From contig CAMPDV010001082.1 in assembly GCA_946699065.1 (NCBI GenBank), positions 1 to 64,000 of the forward strand: a stretch of 64,000 nucleotides of DNA. The letters run 5' to 3'. Both the position numbers and the translations under genes were made by a program. The notes under the pieces were generated by a model. That model was given only the letters and a program-made list of their open reading frames with translations. It was not told where the DNA came from and searched no databases. This document shows positions 19,006 through 63,809 of the stretch, in pieces (the first letter of the stretch is position 1; the number at the start of each line of letters is the position of its first letter). This DNA comes from Loxodes magnus. Taxonomy: Eukaryota > Ciliophora > Karyorelictea > Loxodida > Loxodidae.

Positions 19006-19150
19006 AAATTATCTTATCTTATCTTATCTTATCTTATAATATTACCCAAAGGTTTACTTGAAGAAAGGAACATATATTGAAGCACGAAAAGAACTGAGCA
19101 CCAACAAGGTACTACGCGCTTTATAATAAAATTTATTTATTATTTATAAA
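18972..19150 (+). repeat. Retroelement 3' tails: (TTATC)n and the AGAGC-type tail
   Basis: Directly after relic G the DNA reads GAGCCAACAAGGGCTACTT, then five or so TTATC units (about 19,008-19,035). About 70 bp later comes GAGCACCAACAAGGTACTAC followed by GCGCTTTATAATAAAATTT and TTTATTTATT. The two tails resemble each other and the tails of the SINE-like elements here, so both are probably LINE-recognised 3' ends with simple-repeat termini. Confidence 0.6.
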
Positions 19151-19840: not shown

Positions 19841-20201
19841 ACCGCCATAGTTGTTCGAAGGTGAACAACAAGGTCATCTTCATCAGAGGTGGGGAATTTA
19901 AGTACCCATAATTGACACATGTCGTCCTCTGCTTTGGTGATGCAATGAGACACAATCCTGCCATGTCCTTGGACCTCCAACAAGTAGATAAGATTACGAT
20001 TATTCTTAAATTATATCAGTATTGAACATTTTTATCAGTACTGAATAATTATACCAGTATTGAACAAGGTCTACCAGTATCTGATAATTTGATCAGTAAC
20101 AAACATTCTTGTCAGTATGAACATTTTTTTAAAGAGCTGCGAGTCAATGAAAGTGCTACGCGCTCTATAATCAAATTTATTTATTATTTATTTATTTATT
20201 T
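19841..20201 (+). mobile_element. SINE-like element 1, copy a
   Basis: About 360 bp, much richer in GC at its 5' part than its flanks. It starts near ACCGCCATAGTT and has a 5' hairpin GTTGTTC-GAAGGT-GAACAAC. The conserved body is followed by six degenerate 19-21-bp units (ATCAGTATTGAACATT type, about 20,013-20,127). The 3' hairpin AGAGC...GCTCT and the tail TATAATCAAATTTATTTATT close it. Two further copies lie at 29.8 and 63.5 kb. TTCGAAGG in the 5' loop is near a Pol III B-box, but no convincing A-box was seen. No flanking direct repeat could be defined with confidence. Confidence 0.75.
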
Positions 20202-20422
20202 AATTACATCCTTATAATTTATCTAGTTCTAATTATTTTGAATATAAATAAGTAAAATAAAAATGAAAAGTTAATTTAGTTTAAAGATTGAGATATTTTA
20301 TATATATTTAAGTAAAAATTTATTATTGATAAAATAGAGCTGCTTAAAAATCTAAAATATAGAAAGGTGTGATCATCAATGTAACCTTAAAATTTCTGAA
20401 AATGCATTTTTATAATAAAAAA

Positions 20423-29812: not shown

Positions 29813-30315
29813 ACCGCCATAGTTGTTCGAAGGTGAACAACAAGGTCATCTTCATCAGAGGTTGGGGAAGTTAAGTACCCATAATCGACTTTATGTCTTC
29901 CTCTGCTTTGGTTTGACCTCGAGACATAAGATTCTTAGACCTTCGACACTGGCTTAGTTTAGATTTAATTCTGGAACGAAAAAGAAATAATATTGCGAGC
30001 TTCATCAGAGGTGGGGAATTTAAATACCCATAATTGACACATGTCGTCCTCTGTTTTGGCGATGCAATGAGACACAATCCTGCCATGTCCTTGGACCTCC
30101 AAAAAGTAGATAAGATTACGATTATTCTTAAATTATATCAGTATTGAACATTTTTATCAATACTGAATAATTATACCAGTATTGAACAAGGTCTACCAGT
30201 ATCTGATAATTTGATCAGTAACAAACATTCTTGTCAGTATGAACATTTTTTTAAAGAGCTGCGAGTCAATGAGAGTGCTACGCGCTCTATAATCAAATTT
30301 ATTTATTTATTTATA
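29813..30315 (+). mobile_element. SINE-like element 1, copy b, with duplicated head
   Basis: Same family as 19,841. The 5' hairpin head (ACCGCCATAGTTGTTCGAAG) and first body part occur at 29,813-29,995 in a diverged form. Then a second head fragment (CTTCATCAGAGGTGGGG) restarts near 30,002 and runs to the end. Six internal 19-21-bp units and the AGAGC...GCTCT tail are present. The double head could come from template switching or from insertion of one copy into another. Confidence 0.7.
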
Positions 30316-39440: not shown

Positions 39441-42416
39441 AAAATAAAGAAAAAGAAAGTAACTTAACTTTAACTTTTAAAATATTCCTTTAATATAAAA
39501 TTTAATAATTACTAAAATAGAACTCTCTTAACTTAGAGTCTCTGCAAATATTACTAATATAAAGTTATTAATTTAATAATAAATTTCTTAATTAGATTAA
39601 ATTAATTTATTCTTCTATTTTAAATTTCTTGGTAATTCCTACTTAATTTAAATATTAAGGAGTTGCTTAAATAATTGATTGTTTATATCTAGCAATCTAA
39701 TATATTTAACTTAAAAAATAAATAATAATTTAAAAATATATCATTAGCTGTCTAATTATAGCATACCTAATTATCTATAAACCTTGAAAAAGCAAATATT
39801 TATTTTAAGCTTATTTAAGTAAATAAATAGTAAGTAACAATTATTTTGATTAGAAGCTTAAAGTTTATCTTTCTTTAAACTAAATTAAAGTTATTTTATA
39901 ATTTATCTTAATTATATTATTTTATTAGTTGGTTTTAAGAATTATCTATTAAACTAAAGACAATAAATTAAATAATATTATGTATAATAGATAGAAAAAT
40001 ATTAGGAATATGATTTATTATTATTATAAAAAGTAAAATAGTAAAGATAGCTTTAGTAATTAAAGCAAACATTTCTTAGTAAAACAAATGTATTTTATAT
40101 AATTTAATATAATATTAACTATAAATAATAATTATATTAGTAGCAATAATTCCTATATTAATAATTTAATATTAATTTAAAATTTATTAATTTAAATTTA
40201 TAATAGATCAATAAGTTATAATTGGTTTAAGTTAAATTTAATTAAATTTTTAATTTAATTAAATATAGGATTATTAGAACTGTATGCAAGCTAATTTAAG
40301 ATTAAATATTAGGATATAAAGAAGTTATATTATATTAAATGGTAAAAGGAAATTAATTAATAATTTAATTATCATCAAATTTATTTATTTTCACTTGTTT
40401 AGATAAAAGCTTTTAAAACTGTTGCTATCATTTATTAATCTCAAAGCGCTGCTATCTAATTTCCCAAAAAAACCCTTCTTTATATTAGCATTTGGTTTCT
40501 ATAAATCCTTCTTAAATTAAATTTTTAACTATTTTTGGAAGTAAGATAATAATTAATCATCATAAGATAAAAAAGCTTTCCTTGAGTTGATTGGCCTTGT
40601 ATAAAAGAAAATTAAAAATAATATTTAAATATTACTATAGAAATCCTCATACATGAGGTATCAATTAACTAAATTTTCATTTCCTCGAAATTATCAGCTT
40701 TTTCTAAGCTATTTTAATAATTTTAGAAAGCATTTTAAGTCTAAGCTAGCTTCAATATTCCTGGTTTTTATAACAAAAATTTATCTAAACTTAAAAGTTT
40801 TCAATAATAAATTCTAAAAGTTGCTATAAGAGTTGGTATCAAGGATATTAGTTTCAACAAAGCTATAAAATATTAGAATAACAGTTAAAATTATAATAAA
40901 AATCTAATTTCTTAATAGCACTTTTGTTCTAATTTACCCTTTCCCTTGTTTTGATTCTTATAATAACTATTCCTTAAGAATTCTCCTTCTATATTAATAT
41001 TTAAATATACTACATTTCTTAAGTAATCTAAAAGTAAATAAAACTTATGAAAATAAAACTAAAAATAACTAAATAAAAGTCTTTATTTATGGTTAACAAT
41101 TAATTATTAATATGAAAATATAGGATTTCTCATTAATAACTTCAGCAAAAAGCATTTAGAAATTAGAATAAATCATTAGTATGATATTGATTAAGTTTAG
41201 AATCAATATTTCATTTAATTAATTAAAAGTAAAAGTTGTTGGCTCTAAAATGTATAAACACTTTGCTATAATTCTCATAGAGGGCTATACTTTTGGTATA
41301 AATAATTATACTAAGTAGAAAAATAGATATTAAATTTAGGTTAAAGAAAATAAATAAGCTTTATTTGTAAGGAAACTTAATCTATATCATTTTTAAATAA
41401 AATGACTCATCCATGACAATTATTAAAGTTTATTTTGAAAAATTACTAAAGTATATTACTTTATTTAATTCCTATTTTAGTGCTTTCCTTTTTAATCCAA
41501 AAAAACGCAGATTAAAGATCACATTACAACTCATTCTCACTCAGCTCATAAATATCTAAGCATCTATACATCTTCAAGAATAATTTTTGGATAAGAAACT
41601 CTTCTTTAATTTCTTTAATGTCTCCCATTTATTAGTGTCCTAACGATATTAGTCTTTAAAGCTATTAAATTATCTGGATTGTATTTAGCTAAATAAAATT
41701 AGAATAATAGCTAACATTTAATATAATTAAAGCTTTTATTAATTAATCTTTTAAAAATCATTCAAATGAGAAATATCTAACCATAGTCACTAAATTAGAC
41801 TATCAACTAGATAGTAAAAAATAACAAACTTAAAGTTATATCGTTTTATTGTCACTAATAGAATAATACATTCTAACCTGGTACTATGATCAATCAAGAA
41901 TTTAGATACTTTTTAAATTAATAGTGCTTTTAAAGTTCAAAATTTAAGAATAATAGCTTTAACCATAAAAGTAAAGCAGAAATAATTATAGAATCAGGAA
42001 AATAGCAACTAGCCAAAAGAATAAATATTATTTAATTAAATAAAAAAATCTATGTATTTCAAGTAAGAGATAACTAGTTAAAATAAAAAATTAATAAAGA
42101 AATAGGCAATGCAATTATTTTAATTTATTTAAAAAAGTAACTTATAGAAATGTTTACAAAGGAGGTAAAAGGCTTAAAATCATAAAATAACTTAATTATT
42201 ATAATAACTAGAAAATCCTTAAATTTCATACATGTTTCATAACAATTTCTCATAACTAATAAATTTTTATATAGCTTTTAAATCTAAACCTGTAATTTCA
42301 ATTTTATTTTATCAATAATAAGCTAATTTCTTGATATAAGAATAATAATGTAATTGAATTTTTCAAACAGTTACAATTTTTCCGTGCAAAGACTATTAAA
42401 TTTATAGGATTGCTTG
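39441..42416. other. AT-rich spacer
   Basis: No supported gene. A plus-strand reading around 40,380-41,000 looks protein-like but has almost no Asp or Gly, so I treat it as chance. Confidence 0.4.
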
Positions 42417-43044
42417 ACTTAAATAAAAAAATCTAGAAGAAACCTATTCAATAAAAGAAAATTGTTTAAGAAAATAAACTTAAAATTGAAGAAGATGCTT
42501 TTATTTATAAACTCAAAATACAGTATGATGTTAAGCCTGAATAATATAATCCTACAAAAGAAGATTATTTGAAAAGATGAAATAGAGAAAGCGAAGAACT
42601 TTAAGGAATATGCTTAAGGGATAAAAACGCTTTTGAAAATGATGGTTAAAAGGTTTCTTTGGAAATCAACATATAAGATGATAATTCTTTGTGGTACAAA
42701 GCTAAAGTTAAATTTTCCGTTGAAATTGATATAGAAAACACTTATAATGTTCCTTTCAAAGTTAGATGTTTAAATAAAATTTACCATCCTTGTATTTTGA
42801 TTACAGGTGAGACAAGTTTTGGCTTGTTGAGAAAGTGGAGTTAGAAGACTACTCTTATTTAGATATATGAAGCTTTAAAGAAGTTGTTTATTGACTAGGA
42901 AATAGAAGACTTTATAAATAAAAAAATTTATGATGTGATAAGAAGTAGACCAAGTGAGTTCGAGAATAGAGCAAAGTAGCTTAAGAATGGAGGAATTTAC
43001 GAAGGTGTTGCATACGACAAACTAGTTTGATAATTTCTAATTTA
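42417..43044 (+). CDS. Duplicated UBC (E2-like) module
   Basis: A 628-bp segment matches 47168-47795 with one difference seen (a synonymous C/T in the Leu codon near the end). It encodes the UBC end of the fusion protein downstream: LKIQYDVKPEQ, FSVEIDIENTYNVPFKV, IYHPCILITGE and KKIYDVIRSRPSEF, to TGA 43028-43030. The frame stays open upstream into unique DNA (FKQLQFFRAKTIKFIG), so it could be an independent small protein or a silent copy. No ATG is placed with confidence. Its near identity means a very recent event or sequence homogenisation. Confidence 0.55.
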
Positions 43045-44641
43045 TATAAATAGTTATTTGCATCTATTACAGATATCATTTAATTAAAAGATTCTTTTAA
43101 AATTTATAAAAGTGAAGAATCAATTTCTTTAAAAATAGCAATAATTGTAAAAAATATTTTTTAGTAATCTAAAATATTCAAATTAGTAGAAATTTGCATA
43201 TATTGTTTAAGAAAATCTATTCATATGAGTTATAGTTAAAAGAACATTTTACAATGATCTCAAAGTTGTCTTGGTAAGATGTTTATTTAGCTTCATTTAT
43301 TTAAATAGTAAATTTAAAATTATGAAGCTCTTTTATAATAAGATTCTTAAAGATTAAATATTAAGCTTCCCCTTTACTTTCAAGCTGGTATTCACTACCA
43401 TTTTTTTATGTGGTTGGATAACACGACCTTTTTATTTATGTGATAGATTAACACTAATAATCATTTTTAGTTCGGTATAAAATTTTCTACTTATACAGTC
43501 AATTTCTTTTTTATTAGAGTTTATTAAATTTTATTAATGTCCTTGTTCTTCTCTTATCTGAAGTTTTACTGATGGTAAGATTATTTGGCTTAGGATTTTT
43601 GTTCTATTTTTAAATTATCTTTTTTGGGAATATTTGTTTCCTAGTGATTCTAATCTCTTTTCTAACTGTAATATTTTATTAGTAGCTAGATATGAGTTTT
43701 TAATTTCTATATCAGAAGCTCTTTTGTTTAATAAAGTCACTACTTGAAATAGTTAGAATCAATAATAATCTTAATTGAGCAAAACTAATTTAGTAATTTT
43801 ATGGTCTATCTGGAGTGCTAAGTATAAAGACATACTTAATAATTTTTTGGTTGCAAGTTTTTTTAAAAGGCAAGGAATTTTCTTGATTAATGGGATTAAT
43901 TTTAGAATTTATGTATTTAAGTTATAGAGCTAATATAATAATATCCTTTGTTCTTAATTCTTACTAAACTGTCATAGTAGTAAATATGGAACACTTTCTA
44001 TTTTAGATAAAAATGAATAAGACTCTTTGTTCTAAAGTTAAAATTAAACTATTCAGAGCATTCTAATAAGCTTTTATTTTTACTTTAAATGATTCTAGTC
44101 TTTAAAATAAAGCATCATAATTTTGTTAAAGAATGGAATGTTAGTTTTAGGAAAATAAATTACCATCTTGATTATTTATGACAATACTGTAAATAAATAG
44201 TAGAAGTACTGAAAGCTTTAGCTTACTAAATTATACTAATTTGCTTATATAACTTTGCAAAAAGCTTCTTTCTAATTTTCATTTTTGCTACCTAGAAATA
44301 AAATTTTAGTATAAGCTAAAATACAAAATTAAATAAAGCCACTCTATTGACTCTAAAAGTTTAAAAACTTGGAATATTTCAACTATAGCTTAATAATATA
44401 ATTTATAAAGAGAGCAACTTATTGCCTTAATTATAAGTATTAATTAATAGAATCAAATAGATTGAGAGTGATTTACTTAATTTTACAACTTTAAAGATTC
44501 TATAATTTACAGTAGAATCTCTATTGCCTTTTATATTTAGTAATTGTATTAATTAAAATATTTAGCTCTAAGTAGAATAATTTATGATGACATCTTTAAA
44601 TTTTAGCTATTTAAGGGAGTTTTAAATAAACTTATAATCAA
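43045..44641. other. Region with competing readings
   Basis: Both strands are open. On the minus strand 43,380-43,800 reads as a charged coiled coil (KILQLEKRLESLGNKYSQ, then IREEQGHQQ), with few Trp and normal Gly. On the plus strand a hydrophobic, Trp-rich frame starts at ATG 43321 and runs in phase into the next gene (44642). The minus reading looks more natural for its part. I call neither as a gene. Confidence 0.35.
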
Positions 44642-47600
44642 ATGCAAACTGTGGCGTTTTGCACAACTAAAGAGAGCTCTTTAGCATTAAAATAATGCTT
44701 TATAGACTGCTTTGGATTTTAGTTTAAACGTGAGAAGAAGAACATTTAGCTATAGGGTATCTTATGAGAATAAGAAACTTTTCTTACCATCATTTATGTA
44801 GATTAGCCACTATACCAATTAAAATTTCCTGGATCACTTTCAAACTATTAAGAAATAGATTTCTTTAGCTGTAATATCATATAAGATCCTATCAATGAAC
44901 AGGTAATAGAAAACATTAAGAGGTAAACTAGACACGCTAGCTAAATTTTACTTTTATTGGATAATAATGTAGAAAATGAGTCGAAATGCAATCAGATATT
45001 GAAAATAGTTGGCGAAAATAAAAAAAGAGTGACTAGTGAAGTTTCATAAGATTCAAAATGATATCAATCTCCTAAGAATAATTGAAGATAGTTCTAACCT
45101 AAAAAAAATATCATTAAAATAAATTACAAAATAATTATGTCAATTATTTCGATGCCATAAATGAAGTGGATTTACGTCTTGGAAAAGCTTTTGGTTCAAT
45201 TTTAGATAGATATTCTGATCAGATTAATCTTCCTCGTAGACCTTTAAAATTTGGTCCAGTTTTAACCCCAGCCTTAGATCTAATTGTTTAAAAATATGAT
45301 TAAATACTAGAAATTGATAATTTTAAAAGATATCGAATGGGAATCGAAGTTTAAGCGACGAACTCAGTTTATGTAAATTTATACTCTTTGATAGAATTTG
45401 CCACTGAAAAAGAAGTTCTTAATTTCATTAGAAATTAGAGATTCGAAGAAAATATTGATAAAACCTATCCTATAGAAAATATTGAACATAAACCATTCTT
45501 CAGAAGAAGGTTAAAACCTCTTGATACATAAGATTTAATAATTGAAGCCTCTAAATATATTAGACTTGGAGTAGACGAAACTATGAAATATGCTTAGATA
45601 TTTTACTAAAATGGAATAATTACAAATCCATAATCATATGCTAAAAATCATAGTAGCAATATTGATTATAACTAGCTTTTATATATGTTTGGATAGAATT
45701 AATATTGAAGTTAATATGTATAAACTTTATGAAAGTAAAACTTTAACACAGGAAAACTTGATGATTAAATACCAATTGTTCCTTTAGTAGCTTTGGATAA
45801 AAATTAATTTCATTGAATGTTTCAATAATATGATTTTTCCTTGAAAAGAATGTTTGACTTATACTGCCTAATAGTAAGCCATTTTTTCGCAAGTTTGGCT
45901 GATGATATGGTTGAGATGCAGTCTAAAATAAGAGCACATATTTAGGGAGTTGAATTCGAAGGAACAGGCTTTTAAATTATATAGTAAGGATTTTCAGTTT
46001 TCCTAACATTTAATTAATAGCTTTTAGGCAAAACAAATTTGGTTCATTCTATTTAATAAAATGATAGACTTACACTAAAGTATTTTCACCCTTCAACCAA
46101 AAATATTGAAAATGCTCCATGATTTTATAATGAGGCGCTTCTATTACAAGAATTAAGAAATTAAAATATTGGAGCAGGAGATTAAATAGACAATCAGTTT
46201 AAGGAGTTAAAAGAAAATTTAGTTACAGTATAAAAACTAAGAAATACTTATATTCCTACAAAATTAGGTGTAGTACTATATCACGCACTTAAGAAAATAG
46301 ATGAAGACTTAGTAAATGTTAAATTGAGAGCAGGGCTAGAATAAAAACTTTATGATATACTAAAGAAAAAGGAAATGAATGACTAAGCAATTATAAACTA
46401 GTGCCTTAGTTATTATAAATTAAAATTCATTAAACTTTAATAAAATTTCGAAGTTTTTAAAGATGTATTCGATAAAGAATATTTTAACTAGCCTCAAATT
46501 ATCGATCTATTTGAATGCATGAAAGAGAGGCGCAATTAAGGCTCGAATTTGAAATACTTATAGGGTTTTAAATAGAAAATATAATGCTTAAATAAGAAAT
46601 GCCTTCAAATTTATCAGATTCCATAAAAGCATATTCTGCCAGAAATCGAAGATTTAGCAAGTAATATAGTAAACATCTAACAAACAAGCATCGAGAAAAG
46701 TTGCTAAAATTGTAGATAATATGATATTATGGCTGGTGAAATGGTAGAAGGTATTATCTCTTTCTGTTTAAAATGCTATAATGATAATAAACTCTCTTGC
46801 TTGACATGTAAAAATACTGACTGTTAATTTAACATGCAACATAAAATAATAACATCCTGCTAAAAGTGCTGTAAAAAAACTTAAAAATCTATGCTATATC
46901 TGAGTTCTTAAGAAAGTTTAGATAATAACTAGCTATTTTTGTATGGTAATAAGATAAAGATTTTCTGTAGAGAATGCTGACATTATATTGAACTAAATGA
47001 AAATATAATTAGAGCTAGAATAAATAAACAATAATGTATAAAATGTAAAAAATAAAACGTATCATGCTAACTTCTAGATATAAAAGAACGGCAACCCAAC
47101 TAAACTATATAAATCAAAACCATTTGCATTCTTTGTAGTGGATATTCTTATAACCCTCCATCATTTAACTTAAATAAAAAAATCTAGAAGAAACCTATTC
47201 AATAAAAGAAAATTGTTTAAGAAAATAAACTTAAAATTGAAGAAGATGCTTTTATTTATAAACTCAAAATACAGTATGATGTTAAGCCTGAATAATATAA
47301 TCCTACAAAAGAAGATTATTTGAAAAGATGAAATAGAGAAAGCGAAGAACTTTAAGGAATATGCTTAAGGGATAAAAACGCTTTTGAAAATGATGGTTAA
47401 AAGGTTTCTTTGGAAATCAACATATAAGATGATAATTCTTTGTGGTACAAAGCTAAAGTTAAATTTTCCGTTGAAATTGATATAGAAAACACTTATAATG
47501 TTCCTTTCAAAGTTAGATGTTTAAATAAAATTTACCATCCTTGTATTTTGATTACAGGTGAGACAAGTTTTGGCTTGTTGAGAAAGTGGAGTTAGAAGAC

Positions 47601-47781
47601 TACTCTTATTTAGATATATGAAGCTTTAAAGAAGTTGTTTATTGACTAGGAAATAGAAGACTTTATAAATAAAAAAATTTATGATGTGATAAGAAGTAGA
47701 CCAAGTGAGTTCGAGAATAGAGCAAAGTAGCTTAAGAATGGAGGAATTTACGAAGGTGTTGCATACGACAAATTAGTTTGA
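44642..47781 (+). CDS. TOP3-like topoisomerase fold (catalytic sites lost) fused to zinc ribbons and a UBC domain
   Basis: ATG 44642 to TGA 47779-47781, about 1,039 residues with one short intron. Order: TOPRIM (VAFCTTKESSLALKQ; DNNVE at residue 107), then EVDLRLGKAFGSIL and KFGPVLTPALDLIV, a typical type IA core. The C-terminal core has PTKLGVVLYHALKKIDEDLV and LRAGLEQKLYDIL; this pattern is closest to eukaryotic TOP3, especially TOP3-beta. The active Tyr of '[I/S]-S-Y-P-R-T-E-T' is replaced: GIITNPQSYA, Asn 322 (45625). TOPRIM D-x-D-x-E is D-x-N-x-E, and the A-E-K-P-S Glu is Thr. Residues about 680-830 hold many C-x2-C pairs. The end is a UBC fold (IYHPCILITGETSFGLL) with Ser 969 at the E2 Cys site. 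A binding or scaffold role is inferred. The frame is intact, so it is probably under selection. Confidence 0.75.
45008..45027 (+). other. Putative 20-nt intron
   Basis: The frame changes between CNQILKI (TOPRIM end) and SDQWSFIRFKMISIS. GTTGGCGAAAATAAAAAAAG is the GT-AG segment of right length class, but its donor is not GTAAG, so the exact boundary is uncertain. Confidence 0.35.
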
Positions 47782-47879
47782 TAATTTCTAATTTAAAGGT
47801 ATAAATGTATACAAATAATTTAATCATCTGCATCTATTTACAAATAATTATTATTAAAACTTTAAAATTTTGTAAACAT

Positions 47880-48145
47880 TTATATATAACATAAAATAGA
47901 TGTCTTCTGCGGCAGAAAAATTTGTAGATAATTTGATTTAGTGTATACTGCATTGCGAGTAATCTCGCACTAGATGCCACTAAGGGAAGGTGGGCTAGCT
48001 CGTAAGAGACAATCATGACTTGCCTGAATGTTCTCTCTAGCAGTATGTAAGTTTGAAAGACGGTCTTCTAATTAATGACTTAAATAATAAATTAATAAAT
48101 AAATTTGATTATAGAGCTCGTAGCACCTCGTTGTAGCGCAGTTTT
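47880..48145. repeat. Hairpin-rich block with minus-strand SINE-type tail
   Basis: A GC-richer block holds perfect hairpins TTCTGC-G-GCAGAA (about 47,902) and TGCGAG-TAAT-CTCGCA (about 47,952). The minus strand from 48,141 to 48,101 reads CTGCGCTACAACGAGGTGCT, then ACGAGCTCTATAATC and AAATTTATTTATT, the shared retroelement tail. The block is probably a fourth structured SINE-like body next to an oppositely oriented tail. Confidence 0.5.
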
Positions 48146-48332
48146 TTATATAATTAATTCTTATTTGGACATTATTCAAGAAGACTGAAGCATTTGTTTC
48201 AAGATTTGTGAATGATCTTTAATAAATAGATTACCCATTAGGAGGAGCTGATATGACTCATTGGACTAGTAAAATTTTAAAAAGAACCATGAGTATATTT
48301 TTCTTAATATTTAATATTAATATTAATATTAA

Positions 48333-48400
48333 AAGAGCTGCTCCAGTGAGGCGCTACGCGCTCTATAATCATATTTATTTATTATTATTTATTCATTTAT
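48333..48400 (+). repeat. SINE-type 3' tail
   Basis: AGAGCTGCTCCAGTGAGGCG, then CTACGCGCTCTATAATC and TTTATTTATTATTATT: the shared AGAGC...GCTCT tail on the plus strand. It faces away from the minus-strand tail 190 bp upstream. An (AATATT)n run precedes it. Confidence 0.65.
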
Positions 48401-57959: not shown

Positions 57960-58850
57960 TGCCTTTCGGCCCTAGCTTAATACTAGTCTCCTTGTATCTC
58001 TATCTTCTGCAGGATTTACATTTCAAGGTTTTTTCGAACAACTCTGAAATTCTTAGCTTCTTCTTATATATATTCACATTTGATGCTGGATAAATTGAGG
58101 CCATCTCCTTTCAAATGTTGTCTTTTAGTTTCTTTTCTATTCTATTCTTTCTCTTTCCTAACATTTTTTCAAAAGTGTTGATCTTTTTGCAAATTTTAGA
58201 TTTCTTAATTTTTTGCATTTTTTAACTTGCTTAGGTCTTGATTATTGATTGCTCAATTTCCATTGGTATAGAATCGCTTATAATTGTTTAGCTTATTATA
58301 CTTTTCTATTCGATTCCATAGATTTTTTCTTCTTATTTTTCTAAATGAATCATTTTATTTTTTTATTTAGCAAATAATTTACTTATTATTAATAGAATTA
58401 CATTAAATCTATAGAAATCCTTTTTAGTTATAATAATATTCCAGCTTTCGCTTATCTTTCTACTATGAACTCCGTCATCATCCTCGGACTGTATGAGTCC
58501 TGTCTTATTATATTTATTTTCCCATAGTCATGAACAAAACCATCGAATTAATTTTCTAGATACTAAACCTTTGTGATAAGAGCTAATGTCACCTTAACCA
58601 TTTTATGTTTTTACTCTTTTTTAAGTGGCCAAAGTCTATATAGGGTTAAATGTCTTGACTTAAATGCTGAATTCGCTGATTTTCTACTTCTTTGCTAATT
58701 TCTTAGTTGAGATATCTCTGGCTAAAATTTCATAGGTTGCTTCAGAGAAGTCATTGATGTTTATCTCTGTTTGTTTCAATAAGAAGATTATGTTATTAAA
58801 GAAAACTTATGCTAGAGAATTTATGCTTCTGTCTTTCTCCCTACTATTAG
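57960..58850 (-). pseudogene. LINE ORF1 (gag-like) relic K
   Basis: Minus strand carries IPMEIEQSIIK (near 58,260), a region of Lys-rich helices where the knuckle has lost its ligands, and the box YPASNVNIYKKKL near 58,060-58,090. It ends with CKSCRRQRYKETS and a GC-rich end (LGPKGK). The 5' half to about 58,850 reads as acidic coil fragments in more than one frame. An old copy. Confidence 0.55.
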
Positions 58851-63491: not shown

Positions 63492-63794
63492 TAGTTGTTC
63501 GAAGGTGAGCAGCAAGGACATCTTCATCAGAGGTGGGGAATTTAAGTACCCATAATTGACACATGTCGTCCTCTGCTTTGGTGATGCAATGAGACACAAT
63601 CCTGCCATGTCCTTGGACCTCCAACAAGTATTAAAGATTACGAGTATTCTTAAATTATATCAGTATTGAACAAGGTCTACCGGTATCTGATAATTTTATC
63701 AGTATCAAACATTCTTGTCAGTATGAAACATATTTTTTTAAAGAGCTGCGCACCAATGAGAGTGCTACGCGCTCTATAATCAAATTTATTTATA
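63492..63794 (+). mobile_element. SINE-like element 1, copy c
   Basis: Third copy, with the same 5' hairpin in slightly altered form (GTTGTTCGAAGGTGAGCAGC) and the same body. It has only four of the six internal 19-21-bp units (about 63,657-63,735), and the AGAGC...GCTCT tail. Confidence 0.75.
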
Positions 63795-63809
63795 AAAAGC
63801 TCAAGAAAA

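What the first reader, a model, noticed from the sequence alone, without database searches (positions are those of the whole stretch)
44642..47781. Catalytically dead TOP3-like protein fused to zinc ribbons and a dead UBC domain
The TOPRIM, core and C-terminal core of a type IA topoisomerase are recognisable, but the active Tyr is Asn, a TOPRIM Asp is Asn and the catalytic Glu is Thr. The UBC domain has Ser where E2s have Cys. A pseudoenzyme joining a DNA/RNA-strand-passing fold to a ubiquitin-pathway fold is, to my knowledge, not described. The intact 1,039-codon frame argues for function, perhaps as an RNA/DNA-binding scaffold that recruits ubiquitin or a ubiquitin-like partner.
Basis: partly seen in the sequence, partly recalled or inferred. 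Interest (0 to 1): 0.9.

Follow-up and report, generated by a model that had tools for sequence, protein, structure and literature searches.

The report
Dead topoisomerase fused to altered E2
A ciliate genome carries a family of related genes that join a DNA/RNA-untangling enzyme, which has lost its cutting parts, to an altered copy of the enzyme that attaches the small protein NEDD8; the pairing looks new and suggests a nucleic-acid-binding scaffold tied to a protein-tagging pathway.

Summary
The window lies in a 705.7-Mb assembly that fits Loxodes magnus (706 Mbp; TAA/TAG=Gln, TGA=Trp or stop). The gene joins a TOP3-like core, zinc ribbons with 16 cysteines shared with TOP3B, and a UBC12 (NEDD8 E2)-like domain. 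It is not a one-off: 7 distinct fusion genes read Met-to-TGA in one frame, five of them only 50-58% identical to the tandem copy. A sister family has the dead topoisomerase without a detected UBC domain. TOP3B and UBC12 genes with intact motifs coexist. In 12 aligned paralogues the AEKPS Glu and the His are lost in 12, the Tyr in 11. The E2 Cys is Ser, Gly or Asp, but HPN has become HPC in 7 of 7, as in ATG3/ATG10, so 'dead E2' is not settled. Correction: the window copy's frame is not intact; an A tract is one base shorter than in 6 near-identical copies, and the implied intron is coding-like. dN/dS of 0.41-0.59 suggests constraint. Best reading: a non-cutting nucleic-acid-binding scaffold with a NEDD8/ubiquitin-pathway docking domain. 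No expression or biochemical evidence.

The parts
44642..45105 (+). N-terminal TOPRIM-like region (residues 1-155 of the 1,046-aa tandem-copy protein); DxDxE reads DNNVE, Glu of AEKPS reads Thr
   Evidence: alignment with canonical TOP3B L010 and sister family. Toprim Pfam: among dead genes scanned, L018 (6.6e-5, above cut-off) and L016 (1.7e-4, below cut-off) of family A only; none in this gene
44666..44668 (+). Thr codon at the catalytic Glu position of AEKPS
   Evidence: column comparison
44966..44968 (+). Asn codon at the second Asp of the TOPRIM DxDxE motif
   Evidence: column comparison
45020..45026 (+). A tract one base shorter than in 6 near-identical copies; the frame changes here
   Evidence: removes the need for a 20-nt intron at 45008-45027
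45106..46440 (+). Type IA topoisomerase core (Topoisom_bac), residues 156-600
   Evidence: PF01131 E=2.9e-42; human TOP3B E=3.4e-24
45625..45627 (+). Asn codon at the active-site Tyr position (ITNPQS)
46558..47175 (+). Zinc-ribbon region (residues 640-845); 16 Cys shared with TOP3B L010, L011 and the 12 aligned paralogues
   Evidence: Cys columns
47176..47307 (+). Lys/Gln-rich linker between zinc ribbons and UBC domain
   Evidence: alignment A2; low confidence in the model
47308..47778 (+). UBC12-like E2 fold, homologous to the very C-terminus of yeast Ubc12
47536..47544 (+). HPC codons (HPN in E2s); Cys in 7 of 7 fusion genes, TGT or TGC
47566..47568 (+). Ser codon at the canonical E2 catalytic Cys (Ser in 3, Gly in 3, Asp in 1 of 7 fusion genes)
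47779..47781 (+). TGA stop; no TAA or TGA within the last 20 codons, as described for L. magnus genes
42414..43051 (+). Truncated upstream copy (linker + UBC + stop), 99% identical to 47165-47806

Best explanation
It is a catalytically degenerate TOP3 (closest to TOP3B by score) fused to a UBC12-like E2 domain, one member of an expanded paralogue family in a karyorelict ciliate, most likely Loxodes magnus. Shown by sequence: the TOP3 core and zinc ribbons are kept, the residues that cut and rejoin the strand are lost, the E2 fold is kept, the canonical E2 Cys is lost, and the fusion is conserved in diverged paralogues. Inferred: the protein holds single-stranded RNA or DNA with its ring-shaped core and zinc ribbons without cutting it. 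Its UBC12-like domain then docks a NEDD8- or ubiquitin-pathway partner (E1, RING/DCN1-type E3, or the modifier) on the bound nucleic acid or complex.
For: Core and UBC homology. Seven distinct fusion genes, each Met-to-TGA in one frame; six are 50-97% identical to the seventh, five of those 50-58%. Catalytic columns lost across 12 aligned A+B genes while 16 ribbon Cys are invariant in 14 of 14 sequences including TOP3B L010 and L011. dN/dS 0.41-0.59 over 21 fusion pairs; below all 60 neutral simulations at both kappa settings for 4 of 6 pairs tested. Codon-position bias p<1e-7 for B1-B3, B1-B7, B1-B8. No TAA/TGA in the last 20 codons in 7 of 7, matching the L. magnus rule (PMC11441545, section 9 read). 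A TOP3B (L010, E=8.1e-183 to human) and two E2 genes of UBC12 type with HPN and Cys (L057, L058) coexist, which would free this family from their duties. Human TOP3B is said to have a catalysis-independent RNA-binding mode (PMC12585913, passages).
Against: No expression, binding or interaction data. The RGG tail important for TOP3B RNA binding (PMC12585913, passages) has a counterpart in L010 (RG-rich) and none here. dN/dS is high for an essential protein, and 2 of 6 pairs (B5-B7, B1-B2) overlap the neutral simulations at kappa 3. The window copy itself has a frame break. Conserved UBC residues could be structural only. One paralogue (L015) keeps Tyr. No NEDD8 link to TOP3B was seen: the words NEDD8, neddyl and cullin do not occur in the TOP3B-ubiquitylation paper searched (PMC10657456).
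Confidence: 0.6

Rival explanations
1. The UBC domain is not dead: the catalytic cysteine has moved from its canonical place to the Asn of HPN, giving an ATG3/ATG10-like HPC active site. The protein would be a nucleic-acid-targeted E2 for NEDD8 or another ubiquitin-like protein.
For: HPC in 7 of 7 fusion genes with TGT and TGC codons, while the canonical position varies Ser/Gly/Asp; YHPCI invariant in the 7; of the best 120 of 3,594 UBC12-profile hits, 118 show HPN and Cys and 2 had no readable motif; HPC is the conserved catalytic motif of ATG3 and ATG10 (PMC10851258, passages).
Against: 46 of 131 UBC columns are invariant in the 7 genes anyway, and three of the 7 are close to each other; no Pfam hit to the ATG3/ATG10 family; the geometry of the Cys could not be measured; the UBC12 N-terminal E1-docking end is internal here.
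Confidence: 0.13
2. The family has no selected function: a tandemly duplicating, slowly decaying set of TOP3-derived paralogues, of which the window copy is already frameshifted.
For: Window copy 1-base frame break; copy at C1082:81.9-86.4k in several frames; truncated UBC-only copies; elevated dN/dS; tandem array.
Against: Of 8 fusion loci examined, 7 are open in the homologous frame over their whole length; 16 zinc Cys invariant; codon-position bias; sister family also constrained.
Confidence: 0.17
3. The proteins act as competitors or regulators of the genome's own TOP3B (for example in RNA silencing of the abundant retrotransposons), with the UBC part controlling turnover.
For: TOP3B L010 and a semi-degenerate paralogue L011 coexist; Drosophila Top3b works with the RNAi and piRNA machineries (PMC6251927, PMC12070812: starts of abstracts in the listing only); human TOP3B level is set by ubiquitylation (PMC10657456, passages); L. 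magnus is retrotransposon-rich (PMC11441545, passages).
Against: No binding data; no link to retrotransposons was tested here; whether fly Top3b needs its activity for silencing was not looked up.
Confidence: 0.1

Closest known systems
TOP3B (eukaryotic DNA/RNA topoisomerase III beta)
   Same: Type IA core, zinc-ribbon Cys pattern, order TOPRIM-core-ribbons
   Different: Lacks active Tyr, AEKPS Glu, DHPPI His and second TOPRIM Asp; no RGG tail; carries a UBC12-like domain
UBC12 / UBE2M (NEDD8-conjugating E2)
   Different: Catalytic Cys is Ser/Gly/Asp; HPN is HPC; not free-standing but C-terminal to a topoisomerase; N-terminal E1-docking end (recalled feature) internal
ATG3/ATG10-type E2-like enzymes
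   Same: HPC tripeptide within a UBC-like fold
   Different: No sequence membership (no Pfam hit); here HPC sits at the HPN position of a UBC12-like domain
UEV/RWD-type catalytically inactive E2 folds (recalled, not tested)
   Same: E2 fold without the catalytic Cys used as a binding module
   Different: UBC12-like and fused to a pseudo-topoisomerase

Membership tests
Type IA topoisomerase (TOP3B) | Topoisom_bac core fold | tested here: met
   PF01131 E=2.9e-42; human TOP3B 3.4e-24
Type IA topoisomerase (TOP3B) | Active-site Tyr | tested here: not met
   Asn in the window gene; Asn 10, Tyr 1, Phe 1 of 12 aligned paralogues, which include two near-identical pairs
Type IA topoisomerase (TOP3B) | TOPRIM acidic residues (AEKPS Glu, DxDxE) | tested here: not met
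   Glu lost in 12 of 12; DxDxE is DNNxE in 6 of 7 and ENSLQ in 1 of 7 fusion genes; kept in 5 of 5 aligned family A genes
Type IA topoisomerase (TOP3B) | C-terminal zinc-ribbon cysteines | tested here: met
   16 Cys invariant in 14 of 14 sequences; but the Pfam TOP3B ribbon model hits only L010 and L011 of the proteins scanned
Type IA topoisomerase (TOP3B) | Groups with TOP3B in a tree | tested here: inconclusive
   One search puts the dead clade outside TOP3A+TOP3B (88/88) with a long-branch warning; one search leaves the order open
UBC12 E2 | UBC fold and closest kinship to UBC12 | tested here: met
UBC12 E2 | Catalytic Cys and HPN motif | tested here: not met
   Ser/Gly/Asp and HPC in 7 of 7; 118 of 120 listed UBC12-profile hits show HPN and Cys, 2 unreadable
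UBC12 E2 | N-terminal docking peptide for the NEDD8 E1 | tested here: inconclusive
   Only an internal linker is present; feature recalled, function not testable
ATG3/ATG10 | Catalytic HPC motif | tested here: met
   HPC in 7 of 7; motif role from PMC10851258. Only the tripeptide was tested, not its place in the fold
ATG3/ATG10 | Sequence family membership | tested here: not met
   Pfam scan to E=1 lists only Topoisom_bac and UQ_con

The most novel reading that the evidence does not exclude
A natural nucleic-acid-guided modifier-conjugating protein: a topoisomerase ring that grips but cannot cut RNA/DNA carries an E2 whose catalytic cysteine has shifted to the HPN position (HPC), converging on the ATG3/ATG10 active site.
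Probability: 0.12. Interest if true: 0.88.

Novelty: new variant of a known kind. Interest (0 to 1): 0.7.

Why it matters
It would be a natural, expanded family of non-cutting TOP3 proteins, which makes the question 'what does TOP3B do without cutting?' testable outside engineered mutants. It links a nucleic-acid-strand-handling fold directly to the NEDD8 E2 fold. The HPN-to-HPC change offers a natural test of whether an E2 active site can relocate.

Tried and rejected
Two separate genes: rejected. The same fusion stays in one frame in 7 distinct fusion genes. In 4 of the 7 (B1, B2, B6, B7) there is no Met between residue 778 or earlier and the end, so the UBC part has no start of its own; the other 3 do have later Met codons.

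20-nt intron: rejected.

Relatives elsewhere: the protein search with P0001 scored none of 7,056 candidates at E<=0.001. The profile search with A1 returned 11 proteins, bacterial-type topoisomerase I where named. These searches need shared 5-residue words, so absence elsewhere is not proven. The 50,697 phage records gave no DNA match. No Rfam family reached its threshold and no tRNA was found in the window.

Structure of the topoisomerase part (P0001 with 11 bacterial rows) failed (pLDDT 47.7) and was not searched. ATG3 or ATG10 did not appear among the 50 rows shown of either fold search of the UBC model; this excludes nothing.

Tree placement of the dead clade is unsure: one search puts it outside TOP3A+TOP3B (88/88), one search leaves the order open, and both warn of long branches. 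'TOP3B-like' rests on E-values (3.4e-24 against 1.1e-6 for TOP3A) and the shared Cys pattern. L009 is called TOP3A from its motifs by eye; it was not searched by itself.

Neighbouring coding-like segments: 10 stretches drawn from the 23 segments (one with adjusted ends) gave no Pfam match above cut-off.

Papers: searches found no paper with all their terms; one search found 246 papers with at least 2 of 4 terms and showed 10, none of which by title describes such a fusion; one search found none; one search listed one paper (PMC9797194) that mentions 'topoisomerase' and 'Loxodes' once each, not read. The L. magnus paper's main text holds neither 'topoisomerase' nor 'ubiquitin'. One search covered the HPC motif.

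Full report
Origin and code. In-frame TAA and TAG read as Gln, and TGA as Trp or stop. The window is G000:C1082:1-64000 of an unnamed assembly of 705,730,643 bases. The Loxodes magnus macronuclear assembly is given as 706 Mbp, and its code (table 27) has TGA as both Trp and the only stop (PMC11441545: abstract passage, section 9 and further passages seen). Identity as L. magnus is inferred. That paper reports coding TGA and TAA depleted for about 20 codons before the stop, with TAG spared. In all 7 full-length fusion genes here the last 20 codons hold no TAA or TGA; a TAG lies 17 codons before the stop in three.

Correction of the frame. Near-identical copies on C138 run in one frame across the spot; the one read in full gives 1,046 codons, Met-to-TGA. 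Their A tract is one base longer (6 of 6 C138 copies with that site), and the supposed intron's residues are conserved in L015. The window copy therefore differs by one base, in the genome or through assembly (unphased Falcon assembly, about 20-30x; PMC11441545).

A gene family. PF01131 finds 35 matches in G000, which I group into 25 loci. Three are canonical or near: L009 (TOP3A by its motifs), L010 TOP3B (8.1e-183 to human; RG-rich tail) and L011, a semi-degenerate TOP3B paralogue. Ten belong to a sister family A and 12 to fusion family B; a further B copy at C1082:81.9-86.4k, found by DNA search, lies in several frames. Some loci may be alleles: two window stretches of 5.7 and 7.2 kb match C138 at 98.8% and 98.6%. 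Five B copies lie in a 4,741-bp tandem array. A and B join with 100/100 support. No UBC hit is found in the three family A proteins scanned, nor seen in the four aligned, within the DNA held.

Catalytic columns (7 B genes, the tandem copy standing for its near-identical sisters, and 5 of 10 A genes, two of them near-identical). AEKPS Glu is Thr or Ser in 12 of 12. The DHPPI His is lost in 12 of 12. Tyr is Asn in 10, Tyr in 1 (L015) and Phe in 1 (271k copy). DxDxE is kept in 5 of 5 A; the second Asp is Asn in 6 of 7 B, and the 271k copy reads ENSLQ. Four further A loci show the same Asn by eye (L013, L017, L019; L031); the tenth, L024, was not read there. By contrast 16 ribbon cysteines are invariant in all 14 sequences compared. 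In the UBC part the canonical Cys is Ser (3), Gly (3) or Asp (1), and HPN is HPC in 7 of 7. Of the best 120 of 3,594 UBC12-profile hits, 118 show HPN and Cys and 2 had no readable motif. The genome's own UBC12-type genes L057 and L058 have HPN and Cys.

Selection. NG86 dN/dS is 0.41-0.59 for 21 fusion pairs. It is 0.38-0.55 for 9 of 10 A pairs; the tenth (L012-L014, 12 changes) gives 1.21. Neutral simulations average 0.81-0.88 (kappa 3) or 1.19-1.36 (kappa 1) over six pairs. Observed values lie below all 60 simulations at both settings for B1-B3, B1-B7, B6-B7 and A L016-L018, but not for B5-B7 or B1-B2 at kappa 3. Differences between codon positions are significant in 10 of 11 pairs, third position highest; one of the 11 is the L010-L011 comparison; B1-B2 is flat (54 changes, p=0.80). 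The model is crude and dS is high in diverged pairs.

Reading. Cutting chemistry is gone, the nucleic-acid-holding parts stay, and a UBC12 fold has been added and kept. The best mechanism is a non-cutting grip on RNA/DNA with a docking domain for the NEDD8/ubiquitin pathway; grip and docking are inferred. TOP3B is described as acting on some mRNAs without its catalytic activity (PMC12585913, passages). The open alternative is that HPC is a working, shifted active site, as in ATG3/ATG10 (PMC10851258, passages; PMC5244887, one passage).

Noticed in passing
window 42414-43051: Truncated copy of the gene's end (linker, UBC, stop), 99% identical to 47165-47806; the same upstream piece recurs before the C138 array (L039:274-911), and UBC copies also lie at C138:321449 and C1082:113265.
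   Followed up: partly
L011 (G000:C8:103737-107966): Semi-degenerate TOP3B paralogue: AQKPE, DCDKDGE, ITYHKTDT, but DHPPI kept; looks like an intermediate state of active-site loss.
   Followed up: partly
L012-L014, L016-L020: Sister family A: dead TOP3 with an inserted N-terminal stretch of about 120 residues, DxDxE kept, Gln/Asn-rich tail and no UBC domain detected.
   Followed up: partly
L015 (G000:C1082:73295-77512, minus strand): Fusion paralogue that has Tyr at the active-site position (VITYPIS) although other catalytic residues are lost.
   Followed up: partly
L039-L041 (G000:C138:218000-246000): 4,741-bp tandem array with five near-identical fusion genes where the matching part of C1082 has one: copy-number difference between alleles or duplicated segments.
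   Followed up: partly
window 48081-48399; also 19088-19147, 20128-20206, 30250-30314, 63731-63796: Short dispersed repeat present in both orientations, 80-86% identical, next to the gene's 3' side.
   Followed up: no
window 57988-58779, minus strand: Coding-like segment with a sub-threshold DUF4619 match (E=1.6e-4, below cut-off).
   Followed up: no
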